Shown: piece by piece, positions 43,294 to 45,771 of the stretch | Layout of the letters: every line of letters begins with the position of its first letter | Numbering within the stretch: the first letter of the stretch is position 1 | Assembly (NCBI RefSeq): GCF_900156865.1 | Contig: NZ_LT732529.1 | Span: forward strand, 2,544,460-2,608,459 | DNA length: 64,000 bases | From: Litchfieldia sinesaloumensis | Lineage (GTDB): Bacteria; Bacillota; Bacilli; Bacillales; Bacillaceae_L | Direction: 5' to 3' | Made by a program: the position numbers and the translations under genes | Notes under the pieces: model-generated | Database searches by the model: none | The model's input: the letters and a program-made list of their open reading frames with translations, nothing else | What the model was told of the DNA's origin: nothing

Positions 43294-43443
43294 ATGGCTA
43301 AAGTTGATAAAAACCCATCAAAACGTGCTGTTAGCGCAGCGAGTGTCAAAGGTAATGCAGGTCCAGATACACGTGCAAGAAGCGGAAAAACACAATCCAC
43401 TAATCAACAATACGGTGCGCATAATACGGGTGGAGAAGAGTAG
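43294..43443 (+). CDS. yuzL: YuzL-like small protein
   Basis: A 49-residue basic, Ser/Asn/Gly-rich protein of the YuzL family. The segment NPSKRAVSAASVKGNAGP is the family hallmark. The small size and composition recall small acid-soluble or spore-associated proteins, but function is not known to me. The ATG follows GGAGGTGACAATCAA. No terminator follows; the 52-bp repeat array begins about 100 nt downstream in the direction of transcription. Confidence 0.85.
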   Translation: MAKVDKNPSKRAVSAASVKGNAGPDTRARSGKTQSTNQQYGAHNTGGEE

Positions 43444-43541: not shown

Positions 43542-43936
43542 CTTCATCTCGCTTATGAAGGGGATTTGTGTGAGGTCGCTGCCTCCTTTTCCTCTTCATC
43601 TTGCTTGTAACTTCCTTGTTTTCCTCTTCATCTCGCTTATGAAGGGGACTTGGATGAGGTTGCTGCCTTGTTTTCCTCTTCATCTTGCTTATGAAGGGGA
43701 TTTGTGTGAGGTAACTTCCTTGTTTTCCTCTTCATCTTGCTTATGAAGGGGATTTGTGTGAGGGAACTTCCTTGTTTTCCTCTTCATCTCGCTATGAAGG
43801 GGATTTCGATGAGGTTGCTGCCTTCTTTTCTTCTTCATCTTGCTTATGAAGAGGAGTTGTGTGAGGTAACTTCCTTGTTTTTCTCTTCATCTCGCTTTTG
43901 AAGGGGGCTTGGACTTGTTTTATAAATTTCTACAAC
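43542..43936. repeat. 52-bp tandem repeat array, subfamily A (8 copies)
   Basis: Eight copies begin CTTCATCTCGCTTATGAAGG at 43542, 43594, 43626, 43678, 43730, 43782, 43833 and 43885. The spacing is 52, except one copy shortened by 20 and one by 1. Each unit has the palindromic core CTTCAT-N7-ATGAAG followed by a TGTGAGG box and a T/C-rich tail CTTCCTTGTTTTCCT. Because 52 is not a multiple of three, the array cannot encode a regular repeat protein. The units are near-identical through their whole length, so this is not a CRISPR. Confidence 0.9.
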
Positions 43937-44500
43937 CAAGATGACCTTTTCCGGAAGTTATTCCACTCATTCGGGTTTTCATAACAACTATGATGGCCTT
44001 TTCCATGAGGATATCTTACTCGTTCAGGTCTTCATAACACCTATGAGAACCTCTTTCGAATAATCTCCCAACCACTCAGGTCTTCATAACACTTATGAGA
44101 ACCTCTTTCGAATAATATCCCAGCCGTTCAGGTCTTCATAACACCTATGAGAACCTCTTTCGAATAATATCCCAAACACTCAGGTCTTCATAACACTTAT
44201 GAGAACCTCTTTCGAATAATATCCCAGCCGTTCAGGTCTTCATAACACCTATGAGAACCTCTTTCGAATAATCTCCCAACCACTCAGGTCTTCATAACAC
44301 TTATGAGAACCTCTTTCGAATAATATCCCAACCACTCAGGTCCTCATAACACTTATGAGTTACACTTTCGAATAATATCCCACTCCTTCAGGTCTTCATA
44401 ACACCTATGAGAACCTCTTTCAAAGTAATCTCCCAACCACTCAGGTCTTCATAACAATGTTGATGAGATCTTCCCCAAAAATTTCTCACTATACCTAGTC
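43937..44500. repeat. 52-bp tandem repeat array, subfamily B (9 good copies plus decayed ends)
   Basis: Good copies begin CAGGTCTTCATAACACYTATG at 44025, 44077, 44129, 44181, 44233, 44285, 44337, 44389 and 44442: eight steps of 52 or 53. Each carries CTTCAT-N7-ATGAG, then AACCTCTTTCGAATAAT and CCCA-CC-CT. Decayed copies flank both ends (about 43929, 43977 and 44495). The core and period equal those of subfamily A, and the two are contiguous, so they probably descend from one unit. Nothing else is seen out to the terminator at 44595. Confidence 0.9.
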
Positions 44501-44594
44501 TTCATGCCCTAGATGTATAACCTCTTTCCCAAACCATCGGCTCTTCACCTCTTCCATTGACGACTGCTCTCCTTTAACTATCTTTTTTACCATA

Positions 44595-44624
44595 AAAAAC
44601 AGCGCGAGGAAATCACTCCCTCGC
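44595..44624 (-). terminator. Terminator of the proline dehydrogenase gene
   Basis: Stem GCGAGG/CCTCGC extended by CAGC/ACTG with a mismatch; six T follow on the minus strand. Confidence 0.8.
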
Positions 44625-44640
44625 ACTGCTGAATAATATC

Positions 44641-45558
44641 CTATTTTCCAAAGACACCTTTCAATACAAAGGCAACGTTAGCTGGACGCTCGGCTAGGCG
44701 TCTCATGAAATAACCGTACCAATCTGTTCCGTATGGGACATATACGCGCATGGTATAGCCTTCTTTAACTAGCTCTTCATGACGTTCTGTACGAATTCCG
44801 TATAGCATTTGAAATTCAAATTGATCTCTACTTATATTATGTTCCTTCACTAAGTCCATTGTATATTGAATCATTGCTTCATCATGGGTTGCTATAGCTG
44901 TGTAATTGCCATTTAACAGATGCATTTTAATGATTTTTTTGAAGTTCTCATCAACATCTTTTTTCTCGGGGAATGCGACCTCAGGCGATTCCTTGTAGGC
45001 ACCCTTTACAAGGCGAAGATTAGGATTATACTCATTTAGGTCTTCAATATCCTGAACAGTGCGATATAGATACGCCTGAATAACAGTCCCTACATTATCA
45101 TAGTCTTTTCGAAGCTCTTTGAAGATTTCGATTGTCTTCTCACATCTTGAATAATCTTCCATATCAATTGTTACAAATACGTTATTTTCTTTAGCAGCAT
45201 CAAGGATTCTTCTCATATTCCGCATTACAACTTGATCAGAAATGTCCAAACCCATTGAGGTCATTTTTAATGAGAGCTGTGCATTTAAGTTTTCTCGACC
45301 GATCGCTTTAATAGCCTCGATCGAACCATCAGCCATTAGATTGGCTTCTTCGATACTATCAACGAACTCACCTAAGTAATCTATGGTAACTGCGAGTCCT
45401 TTTGAATTTAGTTCTTTGATCTTTTTAACGGCTAAATCTATGGTTTCTCCAGCGACAAATCTTGCTGCACCAAACCGTAAACCATACTTTCTCGCTAGTT
45501 TTGTAAACGCTTTATTTTTTGACAAGAATAAAAAAAGGTTTCGTAAGATTTGTTCCAT
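44641..45558 (-). CDS. Proline dehydrogenase (YusM/FadM-like)
   Basis: A 305-residue proline dehydrogenase, the FAD enzyme that oxidises proline to pyrroline-5-carboxylate. Barrel segments VTIDMEDYSRC, RLVKGAYKESP, ATHDEAMI and FQMLYGIR are intact. From memory it corresponds to B. subtilis yusM, next to the fad genes. The frame opens at 45582, but GAGGAGGAG lies seven nucleotides before the ATG at 45556-45558. No pyrroline-5-carboxylate dehydrogenase is in the window. It is divergent from the spore coat pair. Confidence 0.92.
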   Translation of the reverse strand: MEQILRNLFLFLSKNKAFTKLARKYGLRFGAARFVAGETIDLAVKKIKELNSKGLAVTIDYLGEFVDSIEEANLMADGSIEAIKAIGRENLNAQLSLKMTSMGLDISDQVVMRNMRRILDAAKENNVFVTIDMEDYSRCEKTIEIFKELRKDYDNVGTVIQAYLYRTVQDIEDLNEYNPNLRLVKGAYKESPEVAFPEKKDVDENFKKIIKMHLLNGNYTAIATHDEAMIQYTMDLVKEHNISRDQFEFQMLYGIRTERHEELVKEGYTMRVYVPYGTDWYGYFMRRLAERPANVAFVLKGVFGK

Positions 45559-45771
45559 GGAAGTCTCCTCCTCGTCATGCACACTAGTTGTAATTCTCGT
45601 AATCTAGCGATTTCATTTTATCATGTTTACATCGCCTTGAATATACACCTTAAGAAATTTTGTTGGACGCTTACATTTAGGAAACTTACTATGTTTTTAT
45701 CCTATGCATTTGCATACAAAAACGTTTTGATGGCAACCTAATAATGAAAAATTGAGTGAGGAGGTTTTTAT

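What the first reader, a model, noticed from the sequence alone, without database searches (positions are those of the whole stretch)
43542..44500. Nearly 1-kb intergenic array of 52-bp units in two related subfamilies with palindromic cores
About 18-19 units stand in tandem. Subfamily A (43542-43936) has core CTTCAT-N7-ATGAAG; subfamily B (from about 43937) has CTTCAT-N7-ATGAG with a different tail. Both share a period of 52, about five turns of B-DNA, so the palindromes fall on one face of the helix. 52 is not divisible by three and the units are identical throughout, so neither a repeat protein nor a CRISPR explains it. The strand is strongly pyrimidine-rich. It sits between yuzL and the terminator of the proline dehydrogenase gene. 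It might be a protein-binding array (nucleoid, partition or replication related), a transcribed multi-hairpin RNA, or a minisatellite.
Basis: seen in the sequence. Interest (0 to 1): 0.75.

Follow-up and report, generated by a model that had tools for sequence, protein, structure and literature searches.

The report
Repeat array tied to NERD nuclease
This stretch of 52-base repeats belongs to a known but unexplained class of Bacillus repeats, and the evidence here ties that class, and its 21-base sister class, to two branches of an uncharacterised nuclease-like protein family, which makes their function testable.

Summary
The array is real: two adjoining subarrays, about 18-19 units, period 52, dyad TTCAT-N7-ATGA, between yuzL and proline dehydrogenase. 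It belongs to a published, unexplained class, the 52-nt Bacillus tandem repeats (PMC8161180). New here is a candidate partner. NERD-domain genes (branch 1) have a 50-54-bp array, or a multiple, starting within 300 bp of the stop codon in 80 of 89 testable loci, including 3 of 3 in this genome. A second NERD branch lies beside 20-22-bp-type arrays in 23 of 30 loci and beside 52-bp arrays in 0 of 30. Array sequence tracks protein sequence, most strongly in the C-terminal domain. Best reading: helically phased binding arrays for cognate NERD proteins, of which this is a dispersed copy. Binding, cleavage and physiological role are inferred. Against: 3 of 30 genomes with TTCAT arrays lack a strong match to the protein; the window units are not especially like this genome's own NERD-linked units; an RNA role is not excluded; the structure job never finished.

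The parts
43542..43913 (+). Subarray A: tandem ~52-bp units, dyad CTTCAT-N7-ATGAAG with outer arms CCTC/GGGG; pyrimidine-rich on +
   Evidence: TRF, dyad scan, sequence
43977..44518 (+). Subarray B: tandem 52-bp units, dyad CTTCAT-AACAC(C/T)T-ATGAG, different spacer
   Evidence: TRF, dyad scan
43914..43976 (.). Junction with degenerate sequence between the two subarrays
   Evidence: step of 92 bp between flanking dyads
43294..43443 (+). yuzL, gene on the left, reading towards the array
   Evidence: PF14115 E=1.7e-12
44598..44630 (-). Intrinsic terminator-like hairpin of the proline dehydrogenase gene, between that gene and the array
44641..45582 (-). Proline dehydrogenase gene, convergent neighbour on the right
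   Evidence: PF01619 E=1.4e-44

Best explanation
The array is a dispersed member of a two-part system: a gene for a NERD-domain protein (nuclease-like domain, four-cysteine motif, C-terminal helix-turn-helix-like domain) plus cognate tandem sites spaced close to a whole number of helical turns apart (52 bp, about 5 turns, for branch 1; 20-21 bp, about 2 turns, for branch 2). Shown by computation: genetic linkage, co-variation of protein and array, dyad symmetry, near-constant spacing, conservation of the nuclease motif. Inferred: the protein binds each dyad through its C-terminal domain, neighbouring complexes line up on one face of the helix, and its nuclease domain nicks or cuts at arrays so that repair expands, homogenises and replaces units. 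Copies away from the gene, such as this one, would be further sites for such a protein. The benefit to the cell is not known.
For: (1) 93 NERD branch-1 loci from 57 genomes were picked by protein score alone; 80 of the 89 with at least 250 bp downstream have a 50-54-bp array (or a multiple) starting within 300 bp of the stop, against 6 of 93 with one in up to 1.2 kb upstream (upstream count read from its rows). In loci chosen because they hold arrays, 7 of 8 NERD genes but only 112 of 817 other ORFs (13.7%) have one within 300 bp downstream. (2) Own genome: 3 of 3 near-full-length branch-1 genes. (3) Branch 2 has 20-22-bp-type arrays in 23 of 30 loci (20 of 27 without the three seed loci) and 52-bp arrays in 0 of 30; branch 1 has 20-22 or 40-44-bp arrays in 2 of 93 downstream and 0 of 93 upstream. 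(4) Co-variation: Mantel r 0.45, p 0.001; pairs under 60% identity r 0.21, p 0.001; the TTCAT label needs 7 changes on the protein tree against 15.6 shuffled, 0 of 500 as low; the C-terminal domain carries the strongest partial signal. (5) Genomes: 27 of 30 with TTCAT arrays have a strong branch-1 match (best E below 1e-60, a cut set after seeing the values) against 39 of 119 without (Fisher p 1e-8, relatedness ignored); in the genus the 8 of 9 genomes with an L238 ortholog are the same 8 that have TTCAT arrays (too few to be significant alone). (6) Spacing 51-53 in 1542 of 1594 steps; the arrays were picked for a period near 52, so only the rarity of larger shifts than 1 bp is informative. 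(7) With outer arms fixed by the search, 176 inner-arm combinations (91 different left arms) pair at 65-77% of inner positions 1-4 and 45% at position 5, against 19-30% in the loop (positions 7-8). (8) Motif residues E, Q-x-D, E/D-x-K kept in 86-89 of 89 near-full-length branch-1 proteins and in 30 of 30 of branch 2.
Against: No binding, cleavage or expression data. 3 of 30 TTCAT-array genomes (G009, G017, G063) lack a strong branch-1 match. The window units resemble this genome's own NERD-linked units no more than many others (rank 21 for A and 15 for B among 78 others); A is closest to the unit beside the ortholog in G005 (0.62, null 99% point 0.538), B's best (0.54) is only at that point. 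9 of 89 loci lack an array within 300 bp downstream: L216 (351 bp), L230 (873), L251 (1005), L266 and L294 (upstream only), L210, L235, L302, L304 (none called). NERD loci from related genomes are not independent, and at least one (L208) is a seed locus. Dyad strength of NERD-linked units exceeds shuffled units on average (7.47 against 5.99 of 10 pairs) but the distributions overlap. Arms vary less than spacers within arrays (3.9% v 13.8%), but units were accepted by dyad match and only pairs with a paired consensus were counted, so that contrast is biased. The helix-turn-helix was read by eye; no solved structure matched below E 0.17 and the structure job did not finish.
Confidence: 0.6

Rival explanations
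1. The arrays work as RNA: read-through transcripts form rows of hairpins at the 3' ends of genes (termination, stability or decoys), and the NERD protein handles or is regulated by that RNA.
For: Arrays sit 3' of genes: 40 convergent, 62 codirectional, 8 divergent of 110. Window units fold better than shuffles: + strand z -2.5 and -2.3, - strand -2.9 and -0.9 for the same two stretches; a third, degenerate unit +0.7. On the NERD sense strand G-T mismatches exceed A-C (302 v 145; 33 v 15 arrays). Codirectional arrays are purine-rich on the gene's sense strand (41 v 19, p 0.006). Transcription of 52-nt repeats in B. coagulans is reported (PMC8625621).
Against: For changes within arrays, G-T-making exceed A-C-making (88 v 61, where spacer rates predict 235:268), but by array it is 19 v 14, not significant. 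Branch-2 units of 20-21 bp show no hairpin by eye, while both classes have near-whole helical turns. Both orientations seem to occur at the same site in different relatives (read by eye). A hairpin alone does not need 52 +/- 1 spacing.
Confidence: 0.2
2. REP/RAYT-like selfish pair: the NERD nuclease copies and spreads its arrays, which have no benefit for the cell.
For: Gene plus adjacent array plus dispersed arrays; paralogs; broken NERD fragments in the own genome, one beside a 52-bp array.
Against: The L238 locus keeps its neighbours in the genus: a transaldolase gene lies within about 2 kb in all 8 genomes with the ortholog. The protein had no match in the plasmid (E up to 1e-20) and phage (1e-10) records, and none confirmed in viral contigs. 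Spread of arrays was not observed.
Confidence: 0.12
3. Neutral minisatellite kept by slippage and unequal exchange.
For: Higher-order periods (103, 155, 416 bp), copy-number variation and an empty site in G005.
Against: The same period in unrelated sequences, paired arms with changing letters, linkage to one gene family, few shifts above 1 bp.
Confidence: 0.05

Closest known systems
52-nt tandem repeats of Bacillus (Subirana & Messeguer 2021, PMC8161180; their 2020 J Bacteriol paper not held here)
   Same: Period 51-53, non-coding, several sequence families in one genome, short signals with their reverse in the unit, patchy among species. The window array fits.
   Different: They report no sequence conservation and no known protein. 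Here a shared dyad geometry and a linked protein family are found.
20-21-nt tandem repeats of Bacillus (same paper)
   Same: Constant size, variable sequence, patchy.
   Different: Period near two turns, no dyad evident by eye; linked here to a second NERD branch.
REP sequences and RAYT (TnpA-REP) proteins (recalled)
   Same: Repeat family with a cognate nuclease gene beside some copies and many dispersed copies.
   Different: RAYTs are HUH/Y1 transposases and REPs single or paired hairpins (recalled); here a NERD protein and long phased arrays.
NERD-domain proteins (Pfam PF08378)
   Same: Domain found at E 5e-13 to 1e-20 in 8 proteins scanned.
   Different: Other NERD proteins (SmdA, PglW) were seen only in search listings and family hits; that they have other architectures is recalled.

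Membership tests
52-nt Bacillus tandem repeats | At least four repeats of 51-53 nt | tested here: met
   5.9 and 8.3 copies of period 52; 17 dyads
52-nt Bacillus tandem repeats | Non-coding | tested here: met
   between yuzL and PRODH; 52 not a multiple of three; only short mechanical ORFs, up to 63 aa
52-nt Bacillus tandem repeats | Several families of the same size but different sequence in one genome | tested here: met
NERD-linked array (proposed here) | Array directly downstream of a NERD branch-1 gene | tested here: not met
   the window array lies beside yuzL and PRODH; the NERD genes of this genome are elsewhere. It is a dispersed copy.
NERD-linked array (proposed here) | Shares dyad core with arrays beside the genus orthologs of the NERD gene | tested here: met
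   TTCAT-N7-ATGA core in the 7 arrays of the L238 clade placed on the tree; the eighth ortholog (G002, L251) has no 52-bp array within 300 bp downstream
NERD-linked array (proposed here) | Whole unit resembles the unit beside the own genome's NERD gene | tested here: not met
   rank 21 and 15 among 78 others
CRISPR | Short identical repeats separated by unique spacers | tested here: not met
   the whole 52-bp unit repeats, spacer included
REP/RAYT | Partner is an HUH/Y1 transposase | tested here: not met
   partner matches NERD PF08378
NERD family (for the partner protein) | NERD domain with the E, Q-x-D, E/D-x-K residues | tested here: met
Partition site (parS-like) | Bound by ParB and acting in segregation | not tested
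   not sought

The most novel reading that the evidence does not exclude
The two enigmatic bacterial satellite classes (52 nt and 20-21 nt) are the binding arrays of two branches of one NERD protein family. Each protein recognises its own, fast-changing array through its C-terminal domain, and protein and satellite chase each other, a bacterial parallel to eukaryotic satellite and binding-protein co-evolution.
Probability: 0.5. Interest if true: 0.92.

Novelty: new variant of a known kind. Interest (0 to 1): 0.82.

Why it matters
The 52-nt and 20-21-nt repeats are in print as unexplained, without a known protein. A linked, variable protein family with a conserved nuclease motif gives a named candidate, a likely specificity domain and matched DNA substrates, so the function can be tested directly. 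If binding is shown, this is a widespread, unrecognised DNA-protein system in Bacillaceae and a bacterial model for satellite co-evolution.

Tried and rejected
Rejected or inconclusive: a known RNA family (Rfam, best E 0.82, below the gathering score); coding repeat (period); CRISPR. No relative of the NERD protein in the phage, plasmid and viral collections at the limits used (in 96, 69 pattern matches, none confirmed). RNA against DNA by G-T/A-C mismatches: suggestive by unit, not significant by array. Terminator-like hairpin between NERD gene and array: 10 of 59 against 1.6 expected, so not general. Matching the window units to this genome's NERD-linked units failed; that test used 23 of the 30 TTCAT genomes: the own genome was taken apart, G009, G017, G063 and G131 were left out by me, and G036 and G146 dropped out for want of a NERD-linked unit or a called array. 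G008 failed as an empty-site comparison because its homologs are distant (PRODH 49%, transaldolase 62%). Identity of the core is fixed by the search and is not claimed. The dyad test is partly circular (loci picked by symmetric patterns); others (inner arms only; loci picked by protein) are the fairer tests. In one search L238 was mislabelled because the TRF consensus lost a base; labels from the DNA. My note gave 8 of 93 upstream arrays; the rows give 6 of 93.

Full report
OBSERVATION. Between yuzL (43294-43443, +) and proline dehydrogenase (44641-45582, -) lie two adjoining period-52 arrays. A scan finds 17 dyads between 43542 and 44518, plus two degenerate units visible in the sequence. Units are similar (83% and 88% matches), not identical. 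The + strand is pyrimidine-rich (62% and 59%). A terminator-like hairpin of the proline dehydrogenase gene lies between it and the array. No Rfam family fits.

THE GENOME AND ITS RELATIVES. In the window's genome the dyad CTTCAT-N7-ATGAAG with one mismatch occurs 228 times against 15 for the reversed control. Neighbouring perfect dyads lie exactly 52 apart in 27 of 29 cases, 51 and 53 in the others, although 37-67 was allowed. Of 149 genomes examined (own included), 30 have a tandem TTCAT dyad at 52 bp, three of them (G017, G036, G069) with a single match; the reversed control gave 0 in all 149. The distribution is patchy even within genera. At the window's own site, 7 of 8 genus members with a proline dehydrogenase ortholog (own included) have a 52-bp TTCAT array, with spacers that differ between genomes; G005 has only a 38-bp gap with a hairpin. 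In G002 the array runs into an assembly gap. The ninth genome, G008, has only a 49% homolog and was left out.

WHAT IS IN PRINT. The class is known. PMC8161180 (parts 1-4 of 5 and table passages read) describes 52-nt and 20-21-nt repeats in Bacillus with constant size, 'no sequence conservation' and no known protein, and proposes nucleoid binding or small RNA. PMC8625621 (parts 1-2 of 3) reports transcription in B. coagulans. PMC6749651 (parts 1-2 of 5) is an earlier survey. In the listings of my searches I saw no paper that links NERD proteins to these repeats; the J Bacteriol 2020 paper was not held, and the library holds open-licence papers only.

SHARED ANATOMY. In these, 176 distinct inner-arm combinations with 91 left arms pair by Watson-Crick rules at 65-77% of inner positions 1-4 and 45% at position 5, against 19-30% at loop positions 7-8: the symmetry is kept while the letters change. 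Within NERD-linked arrays the dyad arms vary 3.9% and spacers 13.8%, a contrast helped by accepting units by their dyad. Successive dyads lie 51-53 bp apart in 1542 of 1594 steps up to 130 bp, exactly 52 in 1380; the arrays were picked for a period near 52, so the telling part is that shifts of 1 bp occur (162 steps) while other steps are rare.

THE PARTNER. Of 955 ORFs round array loci, one family of about 302 residues recurred in 8 loci (seven genus names); two larger or equal clusters looked like common superfamilies, an ABC ATPase in 16 loci and a short-chain dehydrogenase in 8 (named by eye). In 7 of these 8 the array follows the gene; L164 is a fragment with the array before it. Pfam names the N-terminal part NERD, PF08378. 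A profile of 7 members (A1) finds strong matches (best E below 1e-60, a cut set after seeing the values) in 66 of 149 genomes: 27 of the 30 with TTCAT arrays and 39 of the 119 without (Fisher p 1e-8). I then took 93 such genes from 57 genomes by protein score alone: 30 best hits of 30 genomes, 3 of the own genome, 60 more paralogs. Of the 89 with at least 250 bp downstream, 80 have a 50-54-bp array or a multiple starting within 300 bp of the stop; 6 of 93 have one in up to 1.2 kb upstream. At least one of these (L208) is the same locus as a seed (L189), and many are orthologs or paralogs, so they are not independent. Of the first 30 genomes 11 had no TTCAT match; 10 of the 11 still showed a 51-52-bp repeat of other sequence beside the gene (L211 and L235 with only about two copies; L214 ends at a contig end). 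In array-selected loci, 112 of 817 other ORFs have an array within 300 bp downstream.

THE SECOND BRANCH. The three array genomes without a strong branch-1 match have divergent NERD proteins beside 21-bp arrays: on both sides in L316, L317 and L319, on one side with 3-4 copies in L315 and L318; six weaker hits (L320-L325) had no clear one. A profile of the five (A2) finds this branch in 108 of 149 genomes at E up to 1e-40. Of the 30 best loci, 23 have a 20-22-bp-type array (or a multiple) nearby, 19 within 500 bp upstream and 9 within 400 bp downstream; three of the 23 are seed loci, so 20 of 27 without them. None of the 30 has a 52-bp array. Branch 1 has 20-22 or 40-44-bp arrays in 2 of 93 downstream and 0 of 93 upstream. 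The own genome has one branch-2 gene, with a 20/40-bp array beside it. Thus the two published repeat classes divide between two branches of one protein family.

CO-VARIATION. Protein identity and unit similarity correlate (Mantel r 0.45; 0.21 for pairs under 60% identity; p 0.001 each; 80 arrays). On a tree of 78 proteins the TTCAT label needs 7 changes against 15.6 shuffled (0 of 500 as low, near-copies included). The C-terminal 61 residues carry the strongest partial correlation (0.25 against 0.03-0.10 for other regions; 0.256 given the rest, p 0.001, although the rest given the C-terminus also stays significant at 0.222). In the genus, 8 of 9 genomes have an L238 ortholog (69-100% identity), the same 8 that have TTCAT arrays. 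That gene keeps its neighbours (a transaldolase gene within about 2 kb in all 8; flanking proteins 82-98% alike upstream and mostly 98-100% downstream, with no upstream match for G002 and only a short one downstream for G003) but is itself only about 70% identical: it changes fast. Dispersed TTCAT arrays resemble their own genome's NERD units more than permuted ones (rank 1 in 7 of 23; mean rank 15.3 against 21.5, p 0.016), but the window's two do not (ranks 21 and 15 among 78 others).

MECHANISM. Nuclease-motif residues and the four cysteines are kept in 86-89 of 89 near-full-length branch-1 proteins and in 30 of 30 of branch 2. I infer a DNA-binding nuclease whose C-terminal domain reads the unit and whose copies sit on one helix face every five (or two) turns. 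Cutting or nicking followed by repair would explain unit turnover and homogenisation. The helix-turn-helix is read by eye; no solved structure matched below E 0.17 and the model was not finished. The physiological role is unknown.

RNA OR DNA. Arrays lie 3' of genes (40 convergent, 62 codirectional, 8 divergent of the 110, out of 155, with close neighbours on both sides) and are purine-rich on the sense strand of codirectional genes (41 v 19), yet pyrimidine-rich on the NERD sense strand (65 of 80). Mismatch tests lean to a sense-strand hairpin but not significantly by array. Near-whole helical turns in both classes favour DNA. I rate DNA more likely, RNA not excluded.

VERDICT. The array is a member of a known class. 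The class now has a candidate partner, strongly linked and co-varying, that I did not find in print in the searches named. I class it as a new variant of a known kind; proof of binding would make it a new kind of system.

Noticed in passing
L021:2402-4001 (own genome C3, about 1671401-1673000): At least 5.4 tandem 294-bp units (99% alike) that carry what looks like a truncated 5S rRNA (recalled from its sequence); no Rfam match at gathering score.
   Followed up: partly
L326-L355; own genome C3:2916641-2917588: A second NERD branch lies beside 20-22-bp tandem arrays, which links the other published repeat class to the same protein family.
   Followed up: yes
L246, L247, L252, L255, L238 downstream of the NERD gene: The NERD gene's own terminator-like hairpin resembles the repeat dyad (for example CCTTCAT...ATGAAGG), as if arrays and terminators shared an origin.
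   Followed up: partly
60 codirectional dispersed arrays; 80 NERD-linked arrays: Dispersed codirectional arrays are purine-rich on the gene's sense strand (41 of 60), NERD-linked ones pyrimidine-rich on the NERD sense strand (65 of 80).
   Followed up: partly
own genome C3:3530032 (L241), 2275244, 394628: Broken NERD fragments; the first still has a 52-bp array beside it.
   Followed up: no
own genome C3:4347879-4349652: A long array (37.7 copies of 52) with matches repeating every 416 bp, eight units.
   Followed up: no
L090, L136, L192, L207: Records titled Chryseobacterium sp. ISL-80 carry the same Bacillaceae-type arrays; the title looks wrong.
   Followed up: no
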